Assembly: GCF_045679555.1 (NCBI RefSeq)
Contig: NC_092096.1
Location: forward strand, 28,776,364-28,840,363
Origin: Salvelinus alpinus
Lineage: Eukaryota; Chordata; Actinopteri; Salmoniformes; Salmonidae
Reading direction: 5' to 3'
DNA: 64,000 bases
Shown here: positions 8,646 to 58,963 of the stretch, in pieces
Numbering within the stretch: the first letter of the stretch is position 1
How the letters are laid out: every line of letters starts with the position of its first letter
Made by a program: the position numbers and the translations under genes
The notes under the pieces: generated by a model
What the model saw: only the letters and a program-made list of their open reading frames with translations
Databases searched by the model: none
Told to the model about the DNA's origin: nothing

Positions 8646-10191
8646 CAGTCGTGGCCAAAAGTTTTGAGAATGACACAAATATTAATTTTCACAAAGTCTG
8701 CTGCCTCAGTTTGTATGATGGCAATTTGCACATACTCCAGAATGTTATGAAGAGTGATCAAATGAAATTGCAATTACTTGCAAAGTCCCTCTTTGCCATG
8801 CACATGAACTGAATCCCCCAAAAACATTTCCACTGCGTGTCAGCCCTGCCAGAAAAGGACCAGCTGACATCATGTCAGTGATTCTCTCGTTAACACAGGT
8901 GTGAGTGTTGACGAGGACAAGGCTGGAGATCATTCTGTCATGCTGATTGAGTTTGAATAACAGACTGGAAGCTTCAAAAGGAGGGTGGTGCTTGGAATCA
9001 CTGTTCTTCCTCTGTCAAACATGGTTACCTGCAAGGAAACACGTGCCGTAATCATTGCTTTGCACAAAAAGGGCTTCACAGGCAAGGATATTGCTGCCAG
9101 TAAGATTGCACCTAAATCAACCATTTATCGGATCATCAAGAACTTCAAGGAGAGTGGTTCAATTGTTGTGAAGAAGGCTTCAGGGCGCCCAAGAAAGTCC
9201 AGCAAGCGCCAGGACCGTCTCCTAAAGTTGATTCAGCTGTGGGATCGGGGCACCACCAGTACAGAGCTTGCTCAGGAATGGCAGCAGGCAGGTGTGAGTG
9301 CATCTGCACGCACAGTGAGGCGAAGACTAATGAAGGATGGCCTGGTGTCAAGAAGGGCAGCAAAGAAGCCACTTCTCTCCAGGAAAAACATCAGGGACAG
9401 ACATATTCTGCAAAAGGTACAGGGATTGGACTGGTGAGGTCTGTAGTAAAGTCATTTTCTCTGATGAATCCCCTTTTTATTGTTTGGGGCATCTGGAAAA
9501 AAGCTTGTCCGGTGAAGACAGGACCATCAGTCCTGTGTCATGCCAACAGTAAAGCATCCTGAGACCATTCATGTGTGGGGTTGCTTCTCAGCCAAGTGAG
9601 TGGGCTCACTCACAATTTTGCCTAAGAACACAGCCATGAATAAAGAATGGTACCAACACATCCTCCGAGAGCAACTTCTCCCAACCATCCAGGAACAGTT
9701 TGGTGACGAACAATGCCTTTTCCAGCATGATGGAGCACCTTGTCATAAGGCAAAAGTGATAATTAAGTGTCTCGGGGAACAAAACATCAATATTTTGGGT
9801 CCATGGCCAGGTAACTCCCCAGACCTTAATCCCATTGAGAACTTGTGGTCAATCCTCAAGAGGTGGGTGGACAAACAAAACCCCACAAATTCTGACAAAC
9901 TCCAAGCATTGATTATGCAAGAATGGGCTGCCATCAGTCAGGATGTGGCCCAGAAGTTAATTGACAGCATGCCAGAGCGGATTGCAGAGGTCTTGAAAAA
10001 GAAGGGTCAACACTGCAAATATTGACTCAACTTCATGTAATTGTCAATAAAAGCCTTTGACACTTATGAAATGCTTATAATTAGACTTCAGTATTCCATA
10101 GTAGCATCTGACAAAAATATCTAAAGACACTGAGGCAGCAGACTTTGAAAATTAATATTTGTGTCATTCTCAAAACTTTTGGCCACGACTG
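8646..10191 (+). mobile_element. Tc1-like transposon nested in a second Tc1
   Basis: The terminal inverted repeats (CAGTCGTGGCCAAAAGTTTT at the left) are near perfect, and a TA flanks each side (8644-8645 and 10192-10193). The length is about 1546 bp. It is younger than its host and its transposase is only lightly broken; see the pseudogene entry for 9009-10024. Confidence 0.93.
9009..10024 (+). pseudogene. Broken Tc1 transposase
   Basis: The N-terminal half is open (MVTCKETRAVIIALHKKGFT, paired-like HTH, then GRPRKSS). After about 9430 the frame shifts more than once: VIFSDESPFYC with the first catalytic Asp is in another frame, and short deletions follow. From 9600 the C-terminal half is open again with FQHDGAPCHKAK (second Asp) and [12 protein letters not shown] (DDE triad Glu). 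The three catalytic acidic residues survive, but the frame breaks remove function. Confidence 0.85.
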
Positions 10192-24636: not shown

Positions 24637-34898
<10,262 letters not shown>

Positions 34899-41668: not shown

Positions 41669-42756
41669 TCATTTTGTTTTTTTTACGAGACTTTGTCTTT
41701 CTTTCTGTTGGGAGTACTTTTGGAGAATCTTAACCGGTCTATGAACTCTTCTCATATGATTTACCATATTACCCCTTTGAGTAAATGTTTTCCCACACTC
41801 TGAGCACCGGTGAGGTTTCTCCCCAGTGTGAGTATATATGTGCGTTCTAAGAGAGTCTGAGGTAGTGAAAGATTTGGGGCATTGGGTGCAGGTGTAAGGA
41901 CGCTCGCCTGTGTGAGATCGCAGATGAACCGTAAGATGGCAAGATACTTTGAAACCCTTTCCACAATGTTTACAGGTGTGGGGGTTTTCTCCTGTGTGCG
42001 TTCGTGTATGCAACCGCAGTTCTCCTGAGGTAAGGAATGCCTTACCACATATGCTACATAAATAATTCTTCTCCCCAGCATGCATTCGCGTGTGTCTCAC
42101 TAGTGCACACTGCTGGGTAAACCTCTTACCACAGACAGTACACATGTGACGGCGCTCCCCAGAATGAATGCGTATGTGCACTTTGAGATCATATGCACTC
42201 CTGTACCTCCGGTCACAGTGTTCACATGCGAATGGTCTTTCTTCTGTGTGAAGTAGCTGGTGCTTTTTCAGAGCCCCAGGAGTAGCATATCGTTTGGGAC
42301 ACTGGTCACAATGATATGGCATCGTGTGAACTCCCATATGTAGCGTCAGCAGTGATGGTTTTTTGAAAACCTTCCCACACTCACATGTATGAGTCCTGTT
42401 TTGGGGTGCAGGGGATCCATCTTTTTTCTTGTCAACCTGTTTGATCACCCTCTTTTTGTCCCCCTTTCTGACCACCTTTTTTTTCTTAACCTGTTTGATC
42501 ACCCTCTTTTTGTCTCCCTTTCTGACCACCTTTGTTTTCTTGCCAACCTGTTTGATCACCCTCTTTTTGTCTCCCTTTCTGACCACCTCCTCTTTCTTGT
42601 CAACCTGGTTTCTGTCCTTTTCTACTTGGTCGGTCTTGATGTCCTTGCAGAGGTTGGCCATTTCACTGTGAGATAATGGAGGCAGAGTCCAGGTAAGAAC
42701 CTGGGATGGCTCGTCAGCATTCATCATTACGTTGAGAGAATGATCCAAGTCCAATT
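41669..42756 (-). CDS. Gene A exon 8: basic linker and eight-finger array
   Basis: The largest exon of gene A. After the acceptor (TTACAG) it reads [13 protein letters not shown]. The Lys/Arg-rich tandem repeat follows, then eight C2H2 units beginning [16 protein letters not shown] and ending [20 protein letters not shown] before VH. Linkers such as HTGERPY and HTGEKPH are the canonical inter-finger type, which supports sequence-specific DNA binding. Open-frame translation of this exon alone misses the N-terminal domain. Confidence 0.92.
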
Positions 42757-45700
42757 CTGTAAGGAGAAAATACAGGAGATAAGATTACATAACCACCATA
42801 TATATAGATTCATATTTTTACACAGGTAACTGCCAAACTAAAGGAAACACCAATATAAAATGTTTTCAAAGGGCGTTGGGCCACCACGAGTTGGGCACCT
42901 TGGCATAGATTCTACAAGTGTCGAACTCTATTTGGAGGGATGCGACACCATTCTTCGACAACAAATTCCATCATTTTGTGCTTTGTTGATGGTGGTGGAA
43001 AATGCTATCTCAGGCACCCCTCCATAATTTCCCATAAGTGTTCAATTGAGTTGAGATCTGTGACTGATGGCCATGGCACATAGTTAACATCGTTTTCATG
43101 CTCAAACCATTCAGTTACCACTCGTGCATTGTGGATGGGGGCATTGCCATCCTATGGAGGCATAGCCATGGTAGGCAAAATATTGGCCTGCCCAGCATTT
43201 CTATACATGACCCTAAGCATGTGACTTTAATTGTTTAATTAAGTCAAGAACCACACCTGTGTGGAAGCACATGCTTAGAATATACTTCGTATGCCTCATT
43301 TACTCAAGTGTTTTTATTATTTTGGCAGTTACTTGCACATGGTAATTCATATACTTTATTAGTCATAAACAATGGATGAGTGTTTGACCTTTTATATTTT
43401 CCTTACCATCACAGGGTACTGGAGTAACCAACACTGAGGTCTCTGCAGGTGACAGACCCTCCTGTTCCTGTGATGTTGACAGTCCTAGATCCTCCAAACA
43501 TCTATCAGTGCCTTCATCCAGGATTTCATTGTGGTCTTCATATTCACAGACCTCTACCCCCTTATCTATGCATTCATCGTCATCTGAGTATGGCCTCACA
43601 TTGTCAGAGTTGTCTGGCTCGTAGTTAATAACAACTCTCATTTTGGGAGGGAGGGACAGTGTGGACAGGATGGTATCTGCAGTGTATTTAGAGACATGAC
43701 CTGAGTAGGAGAGAACATCAGTTAAACTCACCTACATTGGCAAGTAAAAAATACAAGGTGTCCAATTGGACTATTTACTTCATAGCCATTATCTGGATGG
43801 AGACTTACACTTGTTCAGGTTTCCATGACGCTGATGGTGCTGCAGCACTGTCTTCAGTTGTTCAGGGTCAAAGACAGTATGTCCACATCCCTCCAGGACA
43901 GAGGGGGCAGCACTGAGCCATGCTGTTGTCTAAGAGGAGCAGGGCAAGGGGAGCAGGGCAATACAGAATAATAAAGAGTTCAAATACATTGTACCAGCCA
44001 CTTGAGGTTTTAGACAAGTTTTGAAAGGACCAAATACACCATTCAATTCATCTGTAGAGCCACATGAGGTGATGTTCCGTCAATCTTTTAGAACTGAGAT
44101 GTTTTCCTCAGTACCTGCGTGAGGTCTGGTACAGGCAGCAACTCCTCCAGTCTGGAAAGGAACTCCCACATCAGTGTCTGCAGCGCTGTGTCATACCGAG
44201 GGCCATAGTGGACTGGGAACACCTCCTGTGAAATAGACAATTTAGCATGAAATGAGTCTAGTGCCAAATGTCTCCATTAAAGATGCACTCCAGCTTTTTT
44301 GGAACTTTTCCTTTAGAGAAACAATATCCCAAATATAAGTACTGTAATGTACACACATGTAAGGGTGCAAACTACAAGCAGTAGGCCATTCGAGGAGTTG
44401 GTCTGATGTGATGTCATCAGCCTCCTCCCTTACTTGTGGGAACAATGGAGGAGCAGTTGATCTAAGTAGATGTTCAACTGGTAGCCTACTTCAGAAATAT
44501 ATTCAAGCAAAAGGATCATAAAGAAGTCTAGAGAGAAAGTTCCTCACCTGGAAGAAATGCTCCCTCTCAGAAGGGTCTTCCAGCAGGGTTTGGACCAGCT
44601 CCACAAAGTTACAATCTGCAGCCTCCAATTCATCACCATGACTCTGTCATTAGGTGCAAACAAAACATCAGACAAATGTACAGGAGTGAATCCCTCAGAA
44701 ATAATGTTCTCCTGTGTCTCATTCATAAAGTGTTGCCTATTTAACTAACCTCTTTGTGTAAAGACTTTTCTGTCAACGTGTTGATTATGTCCAGGTGGGC
44801 CTGGATGGTCAGCAGGTCAGCTGTGTCCTTACTGCGACACAACTCTAAAACCAGCTGGAACAGAGGTGGATATGTGAAAAGCAGGACTAGGGCCAATGTA
44901 GTCTGATTAATCAGGGTGTAATACACTATTTATTGGTACATACACAATTTTGTAGGCATTCATTTCATGCTGTAAGTGTTCCTTACAAGCCAGAATGTTG
45001 AATAAAGTTGAATGTAAACTTACTCTACCAGTTGTCTGTGTGGTTTGTCCTTCAGATGCTTGAAACTCGAGAAAATATCCACAGGAAAGTATTGTCTAGG
45101 GCCTACAAAGGTGAAGGTAATTATATATTGTATTTTTTTCTCTCTCTCCAAGCTTGCCACGACAATTGTATGTTCTGAATCGGGAGGATGGATAATGTTT
45201 TTGTGTGGAATTGTAGGGGAAAGAAATATTGAAAAATATTCGCACACAAAAAAGGTGTGGATTGTTCTCCATCCTCCCCCGATTCAGAATATTGGTTCTA
45301 TAGCTATTGACGAGAAAAACAAATATCCGATATAAAACTAATTTTACCTAAGTGCCGAACCACATCTCTAAAAGGTTGGGTAAACAATACTTTCCTGTGG
45401 AAATGTCGCAAATGCTGAAGTACAATCCGCCAGACAACCGGTAGAGTAAGTTTAAATGTAATTTTATTCAACATTCTGGCTTGTAATGAACATTCATACA
45501 ATTTTGCAGGCATTAGTTGCTGTCTGTATGTACCAATGAATTGTGTATTACAGCCTGATTAATCAGAGCAGGGCAGACATACAGTAATTGCAGCAAGTGG
45601 CTGCCCATAGTTTGTTCCATCATAAGACTCTTCCCATCCCAACCCTCAATATTTACACCTCTCACCCTTGCTCTCAGTCCCAGGATGAGCTGGGTCCTCT

Positions 45701-46039
45701 GCCTGGAACTCAGCAGCTCTGGAACCATCTCTGTCACCAAAGTCACAAACTCCTCCAGCTTCCCATACTGCATCACATTACGCTCTTGAGCCACTTGCCA
45801 CATGAAAGCAGACATCAGGCGTAGAGGTGGAACCAGGAGACGCAAGGAGAACAGATGGAGATCTGTCGCCGAAGAGAAGAGCAACTAACAGATAAACAAA
45901 TACATTCCATAACTCAGCTAGTTAATATTATTACAAGCTATGTGTAGGCTATAACGTTAGGACATATTTGAATGGACATAATTTTTCTACATTTAACAAA
46001 CTAACCTTGTTCTGATGCTGGATCAATAATGTTATCCAT
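41669..46039 (-). CDS. Gene A: TIN2-N-like domain plus eight C2H2 zinc fingers, eight coding exons
   Basis: Minus-strand exons are 46039-46006, 45862-45666, 44854-44750, 44643-44548, 44225-44115, 43929-43809, 43700-43407 and 42756-41669. They join in frame to 681 codons plus stop, all with GT-AG introns. Residues about 12-190 resemble the N-terminal domain of shelterin TIN2: [33 protein letters not shown], then [20 protein letters not shown] and [12 protein letters not shown]. An acidic segment follows ([16 protein letters not shown]). Next comes a basic linker with three copies of VVRKGDKKRVIKQV at about 377-430, then eight C2H2 fingers at 444-657 with TGE-type linkers. Likely a nuclear DNA-binding protein; telomere involvement is only suggested by the domain. 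AATAAA lies about 104 nt past the stop. Gene B is the tandem paralogue. Confidence 0.88.
42823..43335. mobile_element. Short terminal-inverted-repeat element in gene A intron 7
   Basis: The left end CAGGTAACTGCCAAACTAAAG and right end TTTTGGCAGTTACTTG are inverted copies. About 510 bp, no intact frame; the text resembles a deleted Tc1 relative. Absent from gene B. Confidence 0.65.
44893..45572. mobile_element. Foldback insertion in gene A intron 2
   Basis: Arms of about 190 bp (44903-45095 and 45372-45565) are inverted copies: CTGATTAATCAGG, CATTCTGGCTTGTAA, CCACAGGAAAGTATTGT. In gene B the flanks are directly joined (ACTAGGGACAGACGTGCAG), giving an empty site. Confidence 0.8.
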
Positions 46040-46340
46040 AGCTAGTTTGCAAAGAAAAAGAAGCCACTGAAACAAGCTACTGTTAGCTAGCTAAAGAGTT
46101 TGATGCTAACGTTAGGAGTGACCAAGCCTAGAATATACACTGAGGGCTTACAACGTAGCTAAAAAGGTTGATATCTTTATGCAAGCTAGCTAATACTATA
46201 CTAGTTAGCTAGCAAACTATACCCGTTTTCTATAGATAGCCAACATTTGCACATCCCATTACTTTTACCAAAGATGTTCTACTCATCTATCTGTGCTTTC
46301 ACTAACAACAAACAAATCATTGACCTCGACGAAATACTGT

Positions 46341-46350
46341 ACTTCCGGGT
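46341..46350 (-). promoter_or_regulatory. ETS-type site upstream of gene A
   Basis: The minus strand reads ACCCGGAAGT, a full ETS/GABPA consensus, about 300 bp upstream of the gene A start codon. The matching position upstream of gene B (59196-59205) reads ACCTGGAAGT, which keeps GGAA but loses the CCGG core. Such sites are common in TATA-less promoters. Promoter status is inferred from position only. Confidence 0.35.
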
Positions 46351-46884
46351 GATGTTTAAAAACAATCCTTCAGAATAAAGGTCCTCATTTAAAAAAAGAA
46401 AGATGCATACCACAAAATATTATTCTCTTTGTATTTAGTCATTGCAATATATCATTTATTTTTATTGAGGGTTTATAATATTGCCCACCAAAATAGCCTA
46501 ATTCTCCTAACCTGCTGCGTAAGTTCTCCTAACCTGCTACAAAACTGTTCCTGTATACCACCTAGTCAAAACCCTGACTGAGAGACAGCTCCACTTCCAT
46601 AATTAAAATGAATTAAATATTATTAATGGTTCATATTTTTGTTTCAAATGTCAACAAAATTGCCGTTACTGTCCTGCCATCTTACTAAGAAAATTTGAGC
46701 GCTCATCATTGTGGCAAAGGCTTGTCCAGCCTACTTGCCTTGTCAGACGGAGGTCAAAGTCATCTGCAGTTTTCTGGGGAGCTGCCTCTTAACCATCAAC
46801 ATGAATTAATAGGGATGATAATAGAGCTCGCCAGCTTGTAGTCCTAAAAGCCGGAAATTAGTTAACTCTCATATACGTTCAGCC

Positions 46885-47225
46885 ATTCCCATGGGGAAAA
46901 TGGATGGGGAAAGAATAGGGTTTTGGGATAAATGCCAAAAATAAGGTCAGAGGTTAACACAGGCTTAGGAGATCTTGAACGTTTTGTTCTATAAGATAAC
47001 ATCAGTCATTTAACATGACCTTAATGAATTATGAAGCCTTTATGTGCTTTGTGATTTTTTTATTACATAAATGCTTAAAAATGGACAAAAAGTGACTTTA
47101 GCTGATGATGATCTCATAGAACAAAACGTATAAGATCTCCCAAGCCTGTGTTTACCACAGAACTAATTTTTGCCATTTATCCAAAAACCCTCCAAAAACT
47201 CCACTAATTTCCCCATAAGCTTCGT
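46885..47225. mobile_element. Foldback MITE upstream of gene A
   Basis: Inverted blocks TTTTGGGATAAATGCC / GGCATTTATCC-like and ACACAGGCTTAGGAGATCTTG / AAGATCTCCCAAGCCTGTGT form a long imperfect hairpin. No frame. Confidence 0.6.
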
Positions 47226-47279
47226 CCAACGAACCATGGCGGAGTTAGTGCCTACAAAAATGCACCATTGTTATTGCTC

Positions 47280-47775
47280 TCTATGTCGGAGCTGTCGTGG
47301 ATGAGAATGACATGATCTACTTCCTTTTCCCCACAAACATCTGAGAGAAATGACTTTGCCACATCTATGGCAACATTGTAATAAGCTGATGTTATTATAT
47401 GAAATGCTTAATTAATACATTTAGACCAGTGTTGAAAGTTTGCCCTTTCTTGTGTTTGTTACTATTGTAGCGCATTTCATCTCAAAATATGAAAAGACAA
47501 TATTTGAACTTTTGGACTGCAAGAACTCATTTTGTTGACATGCAGCAATAATATTAAGGCATAGCTGACTCATTCAATTAATGATATTACCTAATGTAAA
47601 GAAATTAGGAACTGACAGGATTAGATTAAGCTACGATCTTGTCTGTCCACACATGACTGTGTATCTTGAACAATCCTACTGTACTATGATAGCCACTTGA
47701 GGATTGGCAGATTTGTTGAGTCATTGTGTATCTCAATAACCCAATACAAGATAAGAAGACAAGGATTTGAACCCT
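47280..47775. repeat. Direct repeat R2, upstream of gene A
   Basis: Partner of R1; the two enclose gene A. Its right part also forms the left arm of the 47646-50546 inverted duplication. Confidence 0.8.
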
Positions 47776-47934
47776 GGACATCAAATCGTATTTATGTGCT
47801 GAATACAACTGGTGTAGACTTTACCATGAAATGCTTACTAACCAACAATGCAGAGTTTAAAAATAAAATAGTAACAAGAGGAATATTAAAAAAACGAGTG
47901 GAGTACCAGTACCAGATCAATGTGTAGAAGTACA

Positions 47935-48892
47935 AGGTATTTGAGGTAGATATATACATGTAGGCAGGGTAAAGTGACTAGGTATCAGGATAGATAATAA
48001 GGTATTTGAGGTAGATATGTACATGAAGGCAGGGTAAAGTGACTAGGCATCAGGATAGATAATAATGAGGTATTTGAAGTAGGTATGTACATGAACGCAG
48101 GGTAAAGTGACAAGGCATCAGGACAGATAATAATAAGGTATTTGAGGTAGGTATGCACATGTAGGCAGAGTAAAGTGACTAGGCATCAGGACAGATAATA
48201 ATAAGGTATTTGAGGTCGATATGTACATGAAGGCAGGGTAAAGTGACTAGGCATCAGGATAGATAATAATGAGGTATTTGAGGTTGATATGTACATAAAG
48301 GCAGGGTAAAGTGACTAGACATCAGGATAGATAATAATGAGGTATTTGAGGTTGATATGTACATAAAGGCAGGGTAAAGTGACTAGGCATCAGGATAGAT
48401 AATAATAAGGTATTTGAGATAGATATGTACACGAAGGCAGGGTAAAGTGACTAGGCATCAGGATAGATAATAATAAGGTATTTGAGGTAGATACTGTATG
48501 TACATGAAGGCAGGGTAAAGTGACTAGGCATCAGGATAGATAATAATAAGGTATTTGAGGTAGATATGTACATGAAGGCAGGGTAAAGTGACTAGGCATC
48601 AGGATAGATAATAATAAGGTATTTGAGGTAGATATGTACATGAAGGCAGGGTAAAGTGACTAGACATCAGGATAGATAATAATAAGGTATTTGAGGTAGA
48701 TATGTACATGAAGGCAGGGTAAAGTGACTAGGCATCAGGATAGATAATAATAAGGTATTTGAGGTAGATATGTACATGAAGGCAGGGTAAAGTGACTAGG
48801 CATCAGGATAGATAATAATAAGGTATTTGAGGTAGATATGTACATGAAGGCAGGGTAAAGTGACTAGGCATCACGATAGATAATAACACAAG
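47935..48892. repeat. Minisatellite, about 14 units of about 68 bp
   Basis: Head-to-tail units with core AAGGTATTTGAGGTAGATAT and GGCAGGGTAAAGTGACTAGG. Units differ by a few bases and small indels. A single inverted unit remnant lies at about 50238-50285. Confidence 0.95.
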
Positions 48893-48929
48893 TAAAATAA
48901 ATAACAGAGCAGCAGCAAATTATGAGTTT

Positions 48930-49080
48930 TAAAGTGTGTGTGAACGTGCATGTGTGTGTATTGTGTATGTATGTGTGTTTGTGTTGTGTCGGTCTGCGTG
49001 TGTGTGTGTGTGTGCATATGAGTGTATGTGAATGTGTGTGGGAGTGCCAATGTAGTGGTGTGAGTGATTGTGTATAGGGT
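48930..49080. repeat. TG-rich low-complexity tract
   Basis: Imperfect GTGTGT/ATGTGT sequence between the minisatellite and the truncated Tc1. Confidence 0.85.
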
Positions 49081-49089
49081 TTGTATATA

Positions 49090-50212
49090 CAGTACCTTCA
49101 GAAAGTGTTCAGACCCCTTGACTTTATCCACATTTTGTTAAGTTACAGCCTTATTCTATAATTGATTGAATTGTTTTTCCCCCTCATCAATCTACACACA
49201 ATATCCAATAATGACAAAGCAAGAACAGGTTTGTAGAAATGTTTGCTAATTTATAAAAAATGTAATAAATTAAATATCACATTTACATTAGCATTCAGAC
49301 CCTTTACTCAATAGTTTGTTGAAGCACCTTTGGCAGCGATTACAGCTTAGAGTCTTCTTGGGTATGCCGCTACAAGCTTGGGACACCTGTATTTGGGGAG
49401 TTTCTCCCATTCTTCTCTGCAGATCCTCTCAAGCTCTATCAGGTTGGATGTGGAGCATTGCTGCACAGCTATTTTCAGGTTTCTCCAAAGATGTTCGATC
49501 AGATTAAAGTCCAGGCTCTGGCAGGGCCACTCAAGGACATTGAGAGACCTGTCCCGAAGCCACTCCTGCATTGTCTTGGCTGTGTGCTTAAGGTCATTGT
49601 CCTGTTGGAAGGTGAACCTTCGCCCCAGTCTGAGGTCCTGAGTGCTCTAGAGCAGGTTTTCATCAAGGATCGCTCGGTACTTTGCTCCGTTCATCTTTCC
49701 CTCGATCCTGACTAGTCTCCCAGTCCCTGCCGCTGAAAAACATCCCCACGGGATGATGCTTCACCATAGGGATGGGGCAAGTTCTCCTCCAGATGTGACG
49801 CTTGCCGTTCAGGCCAAAGAGTTCAATCTTGACTTCATCAGACCAGAGAATTTTGTTTCTCATGGTCTGAGAGTCTTTAGGTTCCTTTTGGCAAACTCCA
49901 AGCAGGCTGTCACATGTGCCTTTTACTGAGGAGTGTCTTCCGTCTGGCCACTCTACCATAAAGGCCTGATTGGTGGAGTGCTGCAGAGATGGTTGTTCTT
50001 CTGGAAGGTTCTCCCATTTCCAAAGAAGAACTCTAGAGCTCTGTCAGAGTGACCATTGGATTATTGGTCACCTCCCTGACCAAGGCCCTTCTCCCCCGAT
50101 TGCTCAGTTTGGCCAGGCGGCCAGCTCTAGGAAGAGTCTTGGTGATTCCAAACTTCTTCCATTTAAGAATGATGGGGGCCACTGTGTTCTTGGGGACCTT
50201 CAATGCTGCAGA
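49090..50212 (-). mobile_element. Right-truncated Tc1-family element
   Basis: The left end CAGTACCTTCAGAAAGTGTT lies beside TA. Minus-strand transposase pieces appear: MSAALKVPKNTVAPIILKWK (HTH), NKILWSDEVKIELFG, and VLEWPCQSLDFNLIEHLWRN, with decayed catalytic motifs. The far end is lost at a 28-bp tandem duplication (CTTGGGGACCTTCAATGCT) near 50190-50237. Confidence 0.8.
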
Positions 50213-50728
50213 CATTCTTGGGGACCTTCAATGCTACAGTCACTTTACCCTGCCTTAATGTACATATCTACCTCAAATACCTCGTACTTCTACACATTGA
50301 TCTGGTACTGGTACTCCACTTGTGTATATTTTTTTATTCCTTTGTTATTATTTTATTTTTAAACTCTGCATTGTTGGGAAGCAAGCATTTCATGGTAAAG
50401 TCTACACCAGTTGTATTCAGCACATAAATACAATTTGATTTGATGTCCAGGGTTCAAACCCTTGCTGGGTTACTGAGATACACAATGACTCACCAAATCT
50501 GCCGATCTTCAAGTGGCATAGTACAGTAGGATTGTTCAAGATACAAGACTCTCCTCCTGAGCAGCCACTGTAGGCCTATACACAACACAACCATTGGGTT
50601 AGGCAGCAAATAAAAACGTTTTTGATCAGTGACAGCAGAGCCGGCCGGGCTTCAGGTTTGGAATATCCATTGCAGTGTATAATGCAGCCCAGTTTTACTT
50701 ACACCATCCCAGCAGCTATCTTAGAAAT

Positions 50729-51781
50729 CAGTGGCGATTTGAGCATGTAAATGTTGGTGGGGCAAAAAAAATAAAAAAATATGCATGCCAGCAAAACCAC
50801 TACACAACACAACACTAAACAATACATTCATTGCACTATAACGGTGACAAACGGTGCCCACAAACTGTTAGGGCCTACATAAAGCTGTCCCAACCGCACC
50901 ATAGTGAATTCTTACCACTGCTACACCTGGGTGTCAGCGGAGCCTTGTCTGGCAACGAAACAGTTCATTCAGTCTCATTTACTGCCTTTTTAAAAAACAT
51001 AGCTGATATGACTGACTTGCTTACAAATGTGGTTTCTACTGACAATTGAGATGTACAAGTTATGGCATAAGGGAACAACAAGCGGATAAGAGGCAATCCG
51101 TAATTCCACAATTTCAATTAAGACATTAATGGATGGACAACATACACTTAGTATTACTTTCTTGGATACAGTACACATATCTCCCTGGCATATTACATTA
51201 TGCAGCAGCATACAAGACATTTTTGGACTCCTTGTTGTGCTATGCTCACTTGAACAGGAAGGTGGGGTGGCAGTCCTTCTTGTGGGCTCTAGAAAGAGGC
51301 ACAAAATCCCGACTTGGAATTTTCCATATTTTCCCAGTCTGAGCTAGTTTTATCCGAGTTCCCAATTGTCTTGAACTCACGGAAGTCTGAGATTTCCAAG
51401 TTCACCGTTTCCAGTTCTTTGGAACGCGGCAGAAGTCAAGCTGGATTGACAGCATGGCCAATGTATTCAAACTCTTCTGGCCCATGGTGTTACCCCATTT
51501 TTCTTAATATCCAATTGGTAGTTACAATCTTGTCTCATCGTTGCAACTCCCCATCGGACTCGGCGACGGTCGAGAGCCAAGCCGCACTGCTTAACCCCCA
51601 AGCCAGCCACACCATTGTGTATTACAGCCTGATTAATCAGAGCAGGGCAGACGTACAGTAATTGCAGCAAGTGGCTGCCCATAGTTTGTTCCATCATAAG
51701 ACTCTTCCCATCCCAACCCTCAATATTTACACCTCTCACCCTTGCTCTCAGTCACCTGCCCTGAATGACGCGTAGCCACTG
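50729..51781. mobile_element. hAT-like non-autonomous element carrying a gene A fragment
   Basis: The ends are CAGTGGCGATTTGAGCATG and, inverted, CAGTGGCTACGCGTC. TTAGAAAT flanks it exactly on both sides (50721-50728 and 51782-51789), the 8-bp duplication expected for hAT elements. Inside are a tRNA-derived SINE piece at about 51490-51613 and a stretch at 51614-51753 matching 45547-45683 of gene A. No transposase frame. Confidence 0.85.
51614..51753 (-). pseudogene. Captured fragment of gene A (intron 2 and edge of exon 2)
   Basis: Nearly identical to 45547-45683. It includes the outer edge of the foldback insert in gene A intron 2 (CTGATTAATCAGAGCAGGGC), intron sequence, the splice donor and about 17 bases of exon 2. 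It was therefore copied from a gene A-type allele after the foldback arrived. Confidence 0.8.
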
Positions 51782-51789
51782 TTAGAAAT

Positions 51790-54046
51790 ATAACTTTGCT
51801 CTGTGCTTCTCTGAACATGCACTTTGTTGACTATAGGCTAAGAAAAATTTGATTGAGACCACACAAATAGCCTATAGACACACTTGATATTGTGCGCCCA
51901 GTGGAGAATCATAGATGAGGGGCTCCATCGCGCACATCGATATATAGCCTAATAAGCAACTAATTCTAAAACACTGAGAAATATATACATTTAGTCAATT
52001 ACATGACCATCCCCTGGACTAGATTAAAAAAAATACTAAACCAATATCCCCTTGACTGAAATTGAAAAAGCACGAAGCTCCCCCATTCCTAAGCGCCATT
52101 TATATCTTGCGCTAACATACTGTAAATCCTGTCCTGATTTTGGCCACATTCTGACTATGCCCACATTTGACATTCACATTTTTATTTTCAAAACGCTATA
52201 GGCCAATATCCATTTTCAGAAATGTTGGTAAATTAGTTTTCATCTAATCTATCTAATCATGGCATGGGGTTGTTGAATGACATATATATTTGTTTGAAAT
52301 TACTTTGTTTTTTCAGAGACAAATAATATATATTTTTGCAAAACACTATATCGCCTTACTCTCAGAGAAACTAAGCAGTAGGCCTAGGTTACTGCTATGT
52401 AGTCGAATGTAACAAAGCCTAACTACATTTTAACTGTACAAATGATACATTTGTGACATCAATATTTAAAAAATGAATCAATACCATAATGAGATGTGTA
52501 TGTAAAACATTTACATTTGGAATTTTAGTCACTTAAGCATATGCTCTTATTTAGAGCGATTTACAATTAGTACACAAGACGCACATTCTACATGTTAGTG
52601 AGCTAGCTAGCTTGTTTACACCTGGCAAAAAAGTTCCACGCGACTCGCACTGCTGCTCACAATACGTGGCACTCTGCTACTGGATCCGCTACTCACGCAG
52701 GTCTAGGATTCGTTTCAGCCAGGGTTCATTTGAATTTCACATACAACTTATAGTGTGGATAAGGTTACCAAACACTCCAGGATCCGGACACTTTTTAAAA
52801 ATGTCCTCCTAAAATGACACTCAAATCTAACTGCCTGCAGCTCAGGACCTGAAGCAAAGATATGCATTTTATTGATACCATTTGAAAGGAAACACTTTGA
52901 AGTTTGTGGAAATGTGAAATTAATGTAGGAGAATATAACACATTAGATCTGGTAAAAGACAATTCAAACAAAAAAAACATGCATTTTCTATTTTTCATCA
53001 TCTTTGAAATGCAAGAGAAAGGCCATACATTGAGATAGGATTCTAGGTGTAATTTAGATGTTGTCCACCAGATGACAGCAGTGTGTGCAAAGTTTGACTG
53101 ATCCAGTGAAGAATCACAACACAATATTTTGTATCAAGTCTGCCAGGAGTTTGCCCAAATGTGCCGAATTGGTCAATGTATACATTTTCAAATACATACC
53201 TTTAAAGAACATGCAAAAAAGCTATGGTAATAATTGTTTTTAGTTTACACACTGCCAGGAATGTCATAAATGATGGATCATTAGCTTCCCTACAGAAAAT
53301 ACACTAACCTTCACATCTAGATGGCCAGGCGGGGTGGGTGTGGAGCCAGAGACAGCAGCGGGGTCAAACTGTAAAACCCAGTTCCTACATTTGAATATAA
53401 AAATCTATTTTATCAAACAAAACTATGCTACATTTTATCTCTGGGACCCTCAGGATGACAAATCAGAGCAAGATTACTGAATGTAAGTATATTATTTACC
53501 TTCATAGGTGAATGTATCAAACCAGTTGCCGTGATAAGTGTTTTGTTGTTGTGCACTATCCTCAAACAATTGCATGGTATTTTTTTGCTGTAATAGCTAC
53601 TGTAAATTGGACACTGCTGTTAGATTAACAAGAATTTCATCTTTCTGCCCATATAAGACAAGTCTATGTCCCGGAAAGTTGGCTGTTGTTTACAACATAA
53701 TTCTAATCACATTATCGCATTTTGAGCAACAACTGTCTTGGTTGAGGGACACCAATCCCATAGAGTTAAAGCACCCTTATTAAGATGGCTAGGTGAGACA
53801 ACCACCACATATCACTGTAAAATACCGTATTCAAACATTCCATTTCAACTAAACAATGGATATATAATGTTTTGCATAAAAACAATAGTTTTAATATACA
53901 CCTAAAATCAACAAATAAAAAAATATGAGAACATTAGTATTTGGCACACACATGAAGGTACCCACATGCAATAATTTCAGGTGAAAAAACACCAATGTGA
54001 AAAATTGGTGGACATAGCATTTTGAAAATAAACTCATGGACACTTT
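51790..54046. other. Spacer before the gene B homology block
   Basis: AT-rich, no coding frame or defined repeat end. Homology with the gene A flank starts near 54047. Confidence 0.5.
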
Positions 54047-54190
54047 GTATATGCATATCTTACAAGTGTTAAGGAATCTGGTTGGTCAAACAGTGTAAAT
54101 TGGGTAAATGTCATCATCATCATCCCACTTCTAAAATCATTATTTGCAGTGCAAATATCATGTGTAGATGTGACAAACCTTGATTTGAAG

Positions 54191-54196
54191 TTTATT
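54191..54196 (-). terminator. Polyadenylation signal of gene B
   Basis: AATAAA on the minus strand, about 106 nt after the stop codon, homologous in position and flanks to the gene A signal. Confidence 0.6.
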
Positions 54197-54301
54197 GAAA
54201 AACATGTTTTGATATGATAATCTGATATACAAAAGAGGAATTTCTTGTCTCAATAATTGCAATCAATATTGGAATTACCTATTACATAGTTTCTTTCGAA
54301 C

Positions 54302-55266
54302 TCAAAGCATTTTTACAAGACTTTCTGTGTTTCTTTCTGTTGGACTGCTTTTGGAGAATCTTAACCGGTGAATTCTTCTCATATGATTTACCATATTACA
54401 CCTCTGAGTAAATGTTTTCCCACACTCTGAGCATTGGTGAGGTTTCTCCCCAGTGTGAGTATATATGTGCGTTCTAAGAGAGTCTGAGGTAGTGAAAGAT
54501 TTGGGGCATTGGGTGCAGGTGTAAGGACGCTCGCCTGTGTGAGATCGCAGATGAACCGTAAGATGGCAAGATGCTTTGAAACCCTTTCCACAATGTTTAC
54601 AGGTGTGGGGGTTTTCTCCTGTGTGCGTCCGTGTATGCAGTCGCACTTCTCCTGAGCTAAGAAATGCCTTACCACATATGCTACATAAATAATTCTTCTC
54701 CCCAGCATGCATTCGCGTGTGTCTCACCAGTGTACTTGGATGGGCAAACCTCTTCTCACAGATAGTACACATGTGACGGCGCTCCCCAGAGTGACTGCGT
54801 ATGTGCACTTTGAGATCATAAGCACTCCTGTACCTCCGGTCACAGTGTTCACATGCGAATGGTCTTTCTTCTGTGTGAAGTAGCTGGTGCTTTTTCAGTG
54901 CCCCAGGAGTAGCATATCGTTTGGGACACTGGTCACAATGATGTGGCATCGTGTGAACTCCCATATGTAGCGTCAGCAGTGATGGTTTTTTAAAAACCTT
55001 CCCACACTCACATATATGAGTTCTGTTTTGAAGTGCAGGGAATCCCTCTTTTTTCTTGTCAACCTGTTTGATCACATTCTTTTTGTTCCCTTTTTTGACC
55101 ACCTCTTCTTTCTTGTCAACCTGCTTTCTGTCCTTTTCTACTTGGTCGGTCTTGATGTCCTTGCAGAGGTTGGCCATTTCACTGTGAGAGAATGGAGGCA
55201 GAGTGCAGGTAAGAACCTGGGATGGCTCATTCACCATTACGTTGAGAGAATGATCCAAGTTCAATT
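54302..55266 (-). CDS. Gene B exon 8: basic linker and eight-finger array
   Basis: Counterpart of gene A exon 8, with a single [14 protein letters not shown] unit in the linker. Fingers 1, 2 and 7 are the same or nearly the same as in A. Finger 4 ([20 protein letters not shown]) differs at several DNA-contact positions, finger 6 has Ala for Val, and finger 8 has Cys for Gly. All zinc-binding Cys and His residues are present. The tail after the last finger differs in sequence and length from A. Confidence 0.92.
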
Positions 55267-58200
55267 CTGTAAGGAGAAAATACAGGAAAACAGATTATAT
55301 AACCACTATATATATATATATATAAATGGTTGGTATATATATATGTATATATATATATATGTATGTAAATGGTTGGTCTCATGTTCCCATGAGCTGAAAT
55401 AAAAGATCCCAGAAATTTTCCATATACACAAAAAGCTTATTTCTCTCAAATGTTGTGCACAAATTTGTTTACATCCCTTTTAGTGAGCATCTATCCTTTG
55501 CCAAGATCATCCATCCACCTGAAAGGTGTGGCATATCAAGAAGCTGCTTAAACATTATGATCATTACACAGGTGCACCTTGTGCCATGGAAAATAAAATG
55601 CCACTAAAAAATTTGCAGTTTTGTCACACAACATAATGCCAAAGATGTCTCATGTTTTGAGGGAGCGTGCAATTGGCATGTTGACTGCAGCAATGTCCAC
55701 CAGAGCTATTGTCAGAGAATTGAATGCTAATTTCTCTACCATAAGCCGCCTCTCGAACATCGTTTTAGAGAATTTGACAGTATGTCCAACTGGCCTCACA
55801 ATTGCCGACCACGTGTAATCAGGCCAGCCCAGAACCTCCACATCCGGCTTCTTCACCTGTGGGATCGTCTGAGACCAGCCACCCAGACAGCTGATGAAAC
55901 TGAAGAGTATTTCTGTCTGTAATGAATCCTGTTTGTGGGGAAAAACTAATTCTGATTGGCTGGGCCTGGCTCCCAAGTGGGTGGGCCAATGCCCTCCCAG
56001 GCCCACCCATGGCTGCGCCCCTGCCCAGTCATGTGAAATCCACAGATTAGGGCCTGATGAATTTATTTCAATTGAATGATTTCCTTATATGAACTGTAAC
56101 TCAGTAAAATCGTTGAAATTATTGCGTGTTGCGTTAACATTTTTCTTCAGAATATAAATTAGAATTTAGATGCTATATTAGTCAAACAATGGATGAGTGT
56201 TTGACCTTTTTTATTTTCCTTACCATCACAGGGTACTGGAGTAACCAACACTGAGGTCTCTGCAGGTGACAGACCCTCCTGTTCCTCTGATGTTGACAGT
56301 CCTAGATCCTCCAAACATCTATCAGTGCCTTCATCCAGGATTTCATTGTGGTCTTCATCGTCATCTGAGTATGGCCTCACATTGTCAGAGTTGTCTGGTT
56401 CGTAGTTAATAACAACTCTGATTATTGGAGGGAGGGACAGTGTGGACAGGATGGTATCTGTAGTGTAATTAGAGACATGACCTGGGTAGGAGAGAACATC
56501 AGTTAAACTCACCTACTGTATATTGCCAAGTTAAAAAGACAAGTGGTATCCTATATGACTCTGTACTTCATATCCATCATCTGGATGAAGACATAGGGCT
56601 CGATTAAATCCGATCCGCTTTAGCCAACATCCACATAGTGCTTCCTTTTGGCAGTGTTGGAGGTGGAACTGCGTTAAAGCTGTCAAATCCACAAGTGGCT
56701 ACCGGCATTACATCTAAAACGGACATTGCCATTGGGTTCAAGGAGTCGCATTAACAAAAATCCCATGCAACCTTGTTTACAAGTTTGAACATTGGAATGT
56801 GAGATGTAATCTATACCTCGATTAGGATGACAGAAATCCCCATTATTTAGTTGAATGATTTTTCAATTTGAGCATAATTATTTCTATATAGGCTGCGTAC
56901 TTTCTCGCTCAGAACTTCTAACGCTTGGCAGGTGTGGCTTCATGACCATGATCGGAAGAGCAGCTTCTCACCGATTTGACGGCTCCAACACAGTTCCACC
57001 TCCAACACCACCAAAATGTCCGCTATGCGGGTGTCTACCATCGCCGGTTAGCGGTTGATCTGATTGAATCTAGGCCTTACTATTGTTCAGGTTTCCATGA
57101 TGCTGATGGTGCTGCAACACTGCCTTCAGTTGTTCAGGGTCAAAGACACTCTGCCCACATTCTTCCAGGACAGAGGGGGCAGCACCGAGCCATGCTGTTG
57201 TCTAAGAGGAGCAGGGCAGGGGGAAAACAGTACATTAAAAAGTTCAAAAGTGTTATACCAGCCACTTGAGGTTTTAGACAAGTTTTGAAATGACCAAAAA
57301 CACTATTCAATTCATCTGTAGAGCCACATGACGTGATGTTCCGTCAATCTTTTAGAACTGAGAGGTTTTCCTCAGTACCTGCGTGAGGTCTGGTACAGGC
57401 AGCAGCTCCTCCAGTCTGGAGAGGAACTCCCACACCAGTGTCTGCAGCGCTGTGTCATACCGAGGGCCATAGTGGACTGGGAACACCTCCTGTGAAATAG
57501 ACAATTTAGCATGAAATGGATCTAGTGCCAAATGTTTCCATTTAAGATGCACTTCAGCTATTTTGGAACTTTTCCTGTTGAGAAACAATATCCCAAGTAC
57601 AGTAATTTAAAACACACACTTAAGGTTAAAAACAAAACAAAAAACTTTTGAGCAAAATAGTGTTTTTTAGACAACTACAACCTTCATGGAGGCCATTCAA
57701 GCAGTTGAGTTGGTCTGATGTGATGTCATCAACCTCCTCCCTTGCTTGTGGGAACAATGGAGGAGCAAAAACATCAAATAAAAGGCCCTGACCGCACCTC
57801 CCCCACTTGTACTATGTCATACCTGGACCACCTGTTGAGATGTGCCTTTTGTTAATTAAGTAAATTAGGTGATAAATTATGTGAAAAGGAGACTGGCGTG
57901 CCACTTTTACAAGATCTTTAGGGTATTCTGAATGCAGAAGAAGGATACTTATAATATTTAATCTAAGTAGATGTTGTTCAACTAGTCTATTTCAGAAATA
58001 TATTCAAGCAAAAGGATCATAAAGAAGTCTAGAGAGAAAGTTCCTCACCTGGAAGAAATGCTCCCTCTCAGAAGGGTCTTCCAGCAGGGTTTGGACCAGC
58101 TCCACAAAGTTACACTCTGCAGCCTCCAATTCATCACCATGACTCTGTCATTAGGTGCAAACAAAACATCAGACAAATGTACAGGAGTTTATCCCTCAGA

Positions 58201-58963
58201 AATAATGTTCTCCAGTGTCTCATTCATAATGTGTTGCCTATTTAACTAACCTCTTTGTGTAAAGACTTTTCTGTCAACGTGTGGATTATGTCCAGGTGGG
58301 CCTGGATGGTCAGCAGGTCAGCTGTGTCCTTACTGCGACACAACTCTAAAACCAGCTGGAACAGAGGTGGATATGTGAAAAGCAGGACTAGGGACAGACG
58401 TGCAGTAATTGCCGCCAGTAGCTGCCCATCGTTCGTTCCATCATAAGACTCTTCCCATCCCAACCCTCAACATGTCCCCCTCTCTCACCCTTGCTCTCAG
58501 TCCCAGAATGAGCTGGGTCCTCTGCCTGGAACTCAGCAGCTCTGGAACCATCTCTGTCACCAAAGTAACAAATTCCTCCAGCTTCCCATACTGCATCACA
58601 TTACGCTGTTGAGTCACTTGCCACATGAAAGCGCACATCAGGCGTAGAGGTGGAACCAGGAGACGCAAGGAGAACAGAGGGAGATCTGCCAGCGAATTGA
58701 AGAGAGCAATTAACAATTAAACAGATAAACAAATAATAAATGCAAAATCGACTGATCCCATAACTCAGCTAGTTAGTAATATTACAAGCTATGTGTAGTT
58801 AGACTATAGGACATATTTGAATGATCCATGTAAAAAACAAAAGAAAAATGTAATGAGTCATGACATATCATTTTCTACATTTAACTACTGCTATGTGATA
58901 AGCAATGCATGACAAAGCAGCAAACTAACCTTGTTCTGATGCTGGATCAATAATGTTATCCAT
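54302..58963 (-). CDS. Gene B: tandem paralogue of gene A, TIN2-N-like domain plus eight C2H2 zinc fingers
   Basis: Minus-strand exons are 58963-58930, 58685-58489, 58355-58251, 58144-58049, 57489-57379, 57201-57081, 56481-56224 and 55266-54302. They join to 628 codons plus stop with the same phases and nearly all the same exon lengths as gene A. It starts [11 protein letters not shown] and carries the TIN2-like block ([40 protein letters not shown]). Exon 7 is 36 bp shorter than in A. The basic linker has one repeat instead of three. Eight intact C2H2 fingers lie at about 393-606. The fourth finger's helix differs from A (HPST in place of QQCA before the conserved Leu). No disabling change was seen, so it looks functional. 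The exon 6 donor abuts a transposon. Confidence 0.87.
55304..55362. repeat. (TA)n-rich tract in gene B intron 7
   Basis: TATATATA runs with ATGG and GTAT interruptions. Confidence 0.9.
55378..56158 (+). mobile_element. Deleted Tc1-like element in gene B intron 7
   Basis: A transposase N-terminus is visible in the plus frame: [39 protein letters not shown]. The central catalytic region is missing and the sequence jumps to late parts (GATCGTCTGAGACCAGCC). Gene A's intron 7 lacks this element and has a different one. Confidence 0.65.
56596..57076. mobile_element. Harbinger-like MITE at the exon 6 donor of gene B
   Basis: Inverted ends GGGCTCGATTAAATCCGATC and (reverse) GGCCTAGATTCAATCAGATC bound about 480 bp. 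Flanking ATA/TTA fits a 3-bp TWA duplication. Gene A has the uninterrupted site (GACTTACACTTGTTCAGG). Its right end starts four bases into the intron. Confidence 0.75.

What the first reader, a model, noticed from the sequence alone, without database searches (positions are those of the whole stretch)
41669..58963. Tandem genes joining a TIN2-N-like domain to eight C2H2 zinc fingers
After splicing, both genes encode an N-terminal region that follows the TIN2 N-terminal (TRFH-like) domain: WQV start, LEEFV, Lx[20 protein letters not shown]...[18 protein letters not shown]. This is fused to an acidic segment, a basic linker and eight C2H2 fingers. TIN2 in mammals is a shelterin hub with no zinc fingers. 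A protein with both could link sequence-specific DNA binding to telomere-type partners, or show a reuse of the domain as a transcription-factor dimerisation module. The domain is easy to miss because it is spread over five small exons.
Basis: partly seen in the sequence, partly recalled or inferred. Interest (0 to 1): 0.8.

Follow-up and report, generated by a model that had tools for sequence, protein, structure and literature searches.

The report
TIN2-domain zinc-finger gene family
Two neighbouring genes, probably from a fish, join the front domain of the telomere protein TIN2 to DNA-binding zinc fingers, and they belong to a larger family of such genes in the same genome that look like DNA-targeting regulators built on a reused telomere-protein domain.

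Summary
Two tandem eight-exon genes (A 46039-41669, B 58963-54302, minus strand) splice cleanly into 681 and 628 aa proteins. Both have a full-length TINF2_N domain (195 bits, cut-off 29.4), an acidic exon, a basic linker and eight fingers, the first non-canonical. The assembly holds at least 60 TINF2_N N-terminal exons. Of 33 loci classified, 25 have an open C2H2 array downstream (2 by position), 2 a broken one, 4 Myb/SANT-like domains (3 by position) and 2 neither; those two are tinf2 candidates. TINF2_N is under purifying selection. Finger contact residues reach dN/dS 1.1-1.2 in one tandem cluster, with mixed results elsewhere.

Best reading: an expanded family of DNA-targeted regulators using the TIN2 TRFH domain as a reusable docking module, comparable to SCAN or KRAB zinc-finger genes. 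A telomere role is not favoured: the TPP1-docking acid (human E153) is kept in A, B and both tinf2 candidates but lost in 10 of 19 distinct finger-linked domains, and the fingers show no telomere-like periodicity. Splicing, expression and partners are untested. My searches of the held library listed no paper on this family; Pfam probably already contains such sequences.

The parts
46006..46039 (-). Gene A coding exon 1 (start ATG)
   Evidence: GT-AG sites and phases
45666..45862 (-). Gene A exon 2, N-terminal part of TINF2_N
44750..44854 (-). Gene A exon 3, TINF2_N
44548..44643 (-). Gene A exon 4, TINF2_N
44115..44225 (-). Gene A exon 5, C-terminal end of TINF2_N (holds the residues aligned with human F152 and E153)
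43809..43929 (-). Gene A exon 6, conserved extension after TINF2_N
43407..43700 (-). Gene A exon 7, ILSTLSLPP motif followed by acidic segment
41669..42756 (-). Gene A exon 8, basic repeat linker and eight C2H2 fingers (fingers about 42385-41741)
58930..58963 (-). Gene B coding exon 1 (start ATG)
58489..58685 (-). Gene B exon 2, TINF2_N
58251..58355 (-). Gene B exon 3, TINF2_N
58049..58144 (-). Gene B exon 4, TINF2_N
57379..57489 (-). Gene B exon 5, end of TINF2_N
57081..57201 (-). Gene B exon 6, extension after TINF2_N
56224..56481 (-). Gene B exon 7, ILSTLSLPP motif and acidic segment
54302..55266 (-). Gene B exon 8, shorter basic linker and eight C2H2 fingers (fingers about 55012-54368)

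Best explanation
Genes A and B are two members of an expanded family of nuclear DNA-binding regulators. Shown by sequence: each couples a TIN2-type TRFH domain (TINF2_N) to an acidic region, a basic linker and a C2H2 array; the pairing recurs across the genome; TINF2_N is conserved; and in one tandem cluster finger contact residues have been rewired while TINF2_N stayed nearly identical. Inferred: the fingers bring the protein to particular DNA sequences, and TINF2_N is a peptide-docking groove that recruits a partner, as the TIN2 TRFH does with TPP1 and TRF2. The family grew by tandem and block duplication of a tinf2-related module joined to fingers, in the manner of SCAN-, KRAB- or FiNZ-type zinc-finger genes. 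The likeliest output is transcriptional or chromatin regulation, perhaps of transposons, rather than telomere capping.
For: Clean eight-exon models with matching phases in A and B, and matches to all eight exons at L028. TINF2_N at 195 bits over the full profile and a match to TIN2 5xyf. 60 loci with the N-terminal TINF2_N exon, my count of the listing; 25 of 33 classified have an open C2H2 array downstream on the same strand, 23 read in sequence and 2 by position. For scale, 11,254 first-look finger candidates in 2.37 Gb would put one within a given 10 kb about 5% of the time, by crude arithmetic. The nine arrays most similar to A's fingers, A included, all lie in TINF2_N loci; none of the listed matches from rank 10 on does. 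TINF2_N dN/dS is 0.16-0.47 in ten of eleven pairs, the eleventh being identical. In a C37 tandem pair TINF2_N differs by 7 substitutions in 202 codons (dS 0.028) while fingers have dS 0.60 and contact dN/dS 1.24. TINF2_N also precedes Myb/SANT-like domains at L037. TIN2 TRFH docks TPP1 and TRF2 peptides (PMC7617103 passages; PMC8262337 passages and section 8).
Against: No RNA evidence that exons 1-7 join exon 8. No partner or DNA target is known. Contact dN/dS exceeds 1 only in the two comparisons inside the C37 cluster; for A against L028 contacts are more constrained (0.21) than the rest (0.62), and for B against L028 they are close (0.38 against 0.30). These are crude Nei-Gojobori values without a likelihood test. 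27 of 60 loci were not classified, and no random-locus control was run. Some loci are identical (L034/L035; the TINF2_N of L033 and L036), so assembly duplicates may inflate the count. Human TIN2 and A share 27% identity in the domain, so partner retention cannot be assumed.
Confidence: 0.6

Rival explanations
1. A telomere-linked role: the proteins keep TIN2's partners (TPP1, TRF2) and bring shelterin parts to sequence-specific sites or telomeres.
For: In A and B the residues aligned with human F152 and E153, both needed for TPP1 and TRF2 binding in human cells (PMC8262337 section 8), are W and E, as in both tinf2 candidates.
Against: Ten of 19 distinct finger-linked domains have lost E153 (5 G, 4 Q, 1 H) and 7 of 19 have lost the aromatic at 152. 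Human A15 is M in A and B and V in the tinf2 candidates. No strict F/Y-x-L-x-P motif in A or B; only LSLPP, which the tinf2 candidates share. Finger contacts have no period-two pattern expected for TTAGGG repeats (by eye).
Confidence: 0.12
2. TINF2_N works as a SCAN-like dimerisation module that assembles homo- or hetero-dimers among family members.
For: The module is found in front of different DNA-binding domains, and TRF1 and TRF2 TRFH domains homodimerise (PMC7617103 passages).
Against: Those passages credit homodimerisation to the TRFH of TRF1 and TRF2 and peptide binding to TIN2's. I recall, without a call, that the TIN2 TRFH is monomeric. No oligomer model was made.
Confidence: 0.2
3. 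Exons 1-7 and the finger exon are separate transcription units, or the genes are decaying copies.
For: No expression data. L022 and L044 have broken finger arrays, and one gene of L029 has a stop in its exon-3 candidate, so decay occurs in the family.
Against: A and B: 14 GT-AG introns, matching phases, gaps of whole codons, no stops; A against B dN/dS 0.52 over 628 codons; TINF2_N followed by fingers on the same strand at 25 of 33 classified loci.
Confidence: 0.06

Closest known systems
TIN2 (TINF2), shelterin hub
   Same: TRFH-type TINF2_N domain over the full Pfam profile; human 190.9 bits, gene A 195.0 bits
   Different: 27% identity to human in this domain; no strict F/Y-x-L-x-P motif; eight C2H2 fingers in place of a non-finger C-terminal half
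SCAN-ZNF genes of mammals (recalled)
   Same: N-terminal interaction module in front of C2H2 arrays, clustered and expanded; as I recall SCAN also occurs with Myb/SANT-like domains, as TINF2_N does here
   Different: Unrelated module; TINF2_N comes from a telomere protein family; dimerisation not shown
FiNZ-ZNF genes of cyprinid fish (PMC10547256, abstract and start of introduction)
   Same: Fish lineage-expanded C2H2 genes with a conserved N-terminal segment; the abstract reports positive selection and transposon derepression on knock-down
   Different: The N-terminal module here is TINF2_N; tens of loci, not about 700; no functional data
TRF1 and TRF2
   Same: TRFH-type domain in the same protein as a DNA-binding domain; the Myb/SANT-like locus L037 echoes TRFH plus Myb
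   Different: C2H2 fingers or Myb_DNA-bind_4 arrays instead of one telomeric Myb; TINF2_N family rather than TRF family

Membership tests
Pfam TINF2_N (PF14973) | Score above curated cut-off over the full profile | tested here: met
   A 195.0 and B 195.1 bits, cut-off 29.4, profile 1-149
Pfam TINF2_N (PF14973) | TRFH-like fold | not tested
   The spliced protein is not contiguous in the DNA, so it falls outside the stated rule of structure prediction and was not sent; fold inferred from the match to 5xyf
TIN2 / TINF2 orthologue | TRF1-binding motif of the F/Y-x-L-x-P type after the TRFH | tested here: not met
   No match in A or B; LSLPP at 236 under a loosened pattern. One long exon each of the tinf2 candidates was scanned too: L039 has one strict match, L043 none, so the test has limited force here
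TIN2 / TINF2 orthologue | Non-finger C-terminal half | tested here: not met
   A and B carry eight fingers; L039 (10 kb) and L043 (6 kb) show none
TIN2 / TINF2 orthologue | TPP1-docking residues F152 and E153 | tested here: inconclusive
   W and E in A, B and both tinf2 candidates; E153 lost in 10 of 19 distinct finger-linked domains
C2H2 zinc-finger genes | Tandem C2H2 fingers | tested here: met
   zf-C2H2 4e-36 and 7.4e-36; seven canonical fingers plus one C-X1-C
Lineage-expanded N-module ZNF family (SCAN/KRAB/FiNZ kind) | Shared N-module in front of fingers at many loci, in clusters | tested here: met
   25 of 33 classified TINF2_N loci with open arrays, 2 of them by position; clusters on C11 and C37. 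Only one genome was searched, so 'lineage' is inferred
Lineage-expanded N-module ZNF family (SCAN/KRAB/FiNZ kind) | Conserved N-module, diversifying finger contacts | tested here: inconclusive
   TINF2_N dN/dS 0.16-0.47; contact dN/dS 1.08-1.24 in one cluster, 0.88, 0.60 and 0.37 in three older pairs, 0.21-0.58 among A, B and L028
Lineage-expanded N-module ZNF family (SCAN/KRAB/FiNZ kind) | Repression of targets or transposons | not testable with these tools
   needs ChIP-seq and reporter assays

The most novel reading that the evidence does not exclude
A fish lineage turned the shelterin hub's TRFH domain into a mobile targeting module. Tens of TINF2_N proteins with C2H2 or Myb/SANT-like DNA-binding domains bring TPP1- or TRF-type partners to non-telomeric sites such as transposons, so part of the telomere machinery doubles as a genome-defence system.
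Probability: 0.12. Interest if true: 0.85.

Novelty: new variant of a known kind. Interest (0 to 1): 0.55.

Why it matters
It shows that a domain known from the telomere-capping complex stands at tens of loci in one genome as the front end of DNA-binding proteins. If partners are retained, it would link telomere proteins to gene or transposon control. If not, it is a clean case for asking how a docking domain is repurposed. Automatic annotation by TINF2_N could also mistake such genes for tinf2 in fish telomere studies, so separating the two kinds has practical value.

Tried and rejected
Structure prediction of the TINF2_N region was not attempted. A tree of 22 distinct fish domains plus human TIN2 did not resolve whether finger-linked genes share one origin apart from tinf2: 13 of 20 inner branches are open and the human row is very long. 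A first table of finger contacts used the wrong -1 position; one search corrects it, and the contact split used the right one. One search printed nothing because of a wrong option; one search replaced it. Searches for the family in print: searches gave no paper; others (2 papers; 20 of 136 listed; 15 of 24 listed; 15 of 49 listed; 20 of 45 listed) showed no title on TINF2_N zinc-finger genes. I read listings, so this is not proof of absence. A word search of PMC10547256 for TIN2 and TERF1 found none. Two papers, under DOIs I recalled (metazoan shelterin evolution; TIN2-TPP1-TRF2 structure), are not held. PMC9943673 passages were seen but not used. Telomere recognition by the fingers was considered and set aside.
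Full report
What was checked. On the minus strand, gene A has coding exons at 46039-46006, 45862-45666, 44854-44750, 44643-44548, 44225-44115, 43929-43809, 43700-43407 and 42756-41669 (681 aa). Gene B has exons at 58963-58930, 58685-58489, 58355-58251, 58144-58049, 57489-57379, 57201-57081, 56481-56224 and 55266-54302 (628 aa). All 14 introns are GT-AG, and the proteins align at 83% identity (565 of 678 columns, 52 gaps).

Domain identity. Pfam TINF2_N matches residues 33-181 of both proteins over the whole 149-position profile, 195.0 and 195.1 bits against a cut-off of 29.4; C2H2 fingers follow. A phmmer search of the PDB with A's N-terminal region returned one entry up to E 10, human TIN2 5xyf, E 2.4e-12. 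Human TIN2's own domain scores 190.9 bits. It is only 27% identical to A's, so the Pfam model probably already rests on fish sequences like these as well as mammalian ones (inference). The eight fingers are seven canonical ones preceded by a C-X1-C finger. Exon 7 is acidic (A: 23 D/E against 7 K/R over 101 residues) and the linker basic (35 K/R against 18 D/E over 124), with a coding repeat of 3 units in A and 1 in B.

A family, not a pair. The window lies in an unnamed 2.37-Gb assembly. TINF2_N gives 125 exon matches there (150 of 196 candidates scored, so a lower bound). By my count of the listing, 60 are the N-terminal exon, in clusters on C11 (20.4-21.0, 28.5-28.8, 31.6-31.8 Mb), C37 and elsewhere. 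I fetched 10 kb at 20 of these loci. In 17 of 20 an open multi-finger frame follows on the same strand, in L022 the fingers are broken, L037 has Myb/SANT-like domains, and L039 has neither. Adding A, B, L041, L047, L048 and a second gene in L033 makes 23 read in sequence, and C22:276458 and C37:16895037 have finger arrays downstream by position: 25. L022 and L044 are broken. Four loci are of Myb/SANT type: L037 by sequence (one domain at E 2.5e-17; eight matches in a row; splicing not modelled), and C26 twice and C29 by position only, where other Myb matches lie nearby, so neighbouring genes are possible. Two have neither, L039 and L043. That is 33 of 60. 27 are unclassified, including L045 and L049, whose 3-kb stretches showed no fingers. 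'Open' refers to the finger frame: exon 3 was not found in L022, the first gene of L033, L036 and L041, and has a stop in the first gene of L029. Identical loci (L034/L035; the TINF2_N of L033 and L036) may be recent or assembly duplicates.

Fingers and module travel together. Searching the genome with A's fingers, the nine best arrays, A included, are all in TINF2_N loci (440 down to 199 bits). None of the listed matches from rank 10 (180 bits) on is at a TINF2_N match (150 of 11,254 candidates scored, list cut). No random-locus control was run; 11,254 candidates in 2.37 Gb mean one per 10 kb about 5% of the time.

Candidate tinf2. L043 and L039 are the two best matches of human TIN2's TRFH in the genome, by a small margin (E 1.0e-4 and 2.7e-4 against 5.5e-4 for the next, a finger locus). 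They have a long non-finger exon and group together at 100/100. Exons 5 and 6 are contiguous in both, but also in broken finger locus L022, so that is not diagnostic. I take them as tinf2, probably a duplicated pair (dS 0.26). Finger-linked domains are 44-54% identical to L043, and A and B share the ILSxLSLPP motif after the domain with L043. A search meant to show that the non-finger exon is confined to these two did not complete.

Selection. I made Nei-Gojobori counts on eleven pairs; one, L034 and L035, is identical. TINF2_N dN/dS is 0.16-0.47 in the other ten. For fingers, the C37 neighbours in L021 have contact-residue dN/dS 1.24 against 0.38 elsewhere, while their TINF2_N differs by 7 substitutions in 202 codons; a second comparison in that cluster gives 1.08 against 0.44. 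L030/L032 give 0.88 against 0.26, L027/L040 0.60 against 0.37, L030/L038 0.37 against 0.23, A/B 0.58 against 0.24, B/L028 0.38 against 0.30, and A/L028 the reverse (0.21 against 0.62). In two pairs (L033/L034, A/L032) synonymous changes are saturated, throughout or at contacts. So diversification of contacts is clear in one cluster and mixed elsewhere. The near-identical TINF2_N beside divergent fingers suggests gene conversion of the front exons (inference).

Interfaces. In human cells A15R, F152A and E153A abolish TPP1 binding (PMC8262337, section 8 read). In 19 distinct finger-linked domains (identical rows dropped, broken L022 included) position 152 is W in 12, G in 5 and C in 2; position 153 is E in 9, G in 5, Q in 4 and H in 1; position 15 is M in 14, V in 2, and T, F and L once each. 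A, B, L037 and both tinf2 candidates are W/E at 152/153. The window genes could therefore still dock a TPP1-like peptide, while other subfamilies have probably lost it.

Mechanism. I think the proteins bind DNA through their fingers and recruit a partner through the TINF2_N groove, with regulation of transcription or transposons as the likely output. DNA binding, recruitment and output are inferred; anatomy, recurrence and conservation of TINF2_N are shown. Telomere function is possible but not favoured.

Known or new. The kind, lineage-expanded N-module zinc-finger genes, is known (SCAN and KRAB recalled; FiNZ from PMC10547256, abstract and start of introduction). A TIN2-derived module in that role did not appear in the listings of my searches. 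I recall that domain databases list fish zinc-finger proteins with TINF2_N, unverified here. Verdict: a real family and a new variant of a known kind.

Noticed in passing
L037 (G000 C11:31755611-31765610): A TINF2_N domain followed on the same strand by eight Myb/SANT-like (Myb_DNA-bind_4) matches instead of zinc fingers; a related Myb array lies at C37:13884596-13887518.
   Followed up: partly
G000 C22:275815-276595 and C22:261475-263093: Myb_DNA-bind_4 matches lie just upstream of TINF2_N exons on the same strand, so the domain order may be reversed or a neighbouring gene may be involved.
   Followed up: no
L021, L023-L026, L029 (C37:13.97-13.99 Mb and C11:31.59-31.61 Mb): Three tandem TINF2_N finger genes in matching order on two chromosomes, synonymous distance 0.04-0.13 between counterparts, probably duplicated blocks.
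   Followed up: partly
window 51614-51753: A 140-bp copy, 99% identical to the exon 2/intron 2 border of gene A, lies between the two genes: perhaps a fragment of a further copy.
   Followed up: no
window 47879-48999: A 68-bp tandem satellite between genes A and B.
   Followed up: no
window 8961-9434 and 29250-31055: A Tc1-like transposase piece (HTH_Tnp_Tc3_2) and LINE-type pieces: a reverse transcriptase match (RVT_1) and a sub-threshold endonuclease match.
   Followed up: no
window 26487-27458: A 324-aa open frame with a sub-threshold RASSF8/10 Ras-association match, probably an exon of a RASSF-type gene.
   Followed up: no
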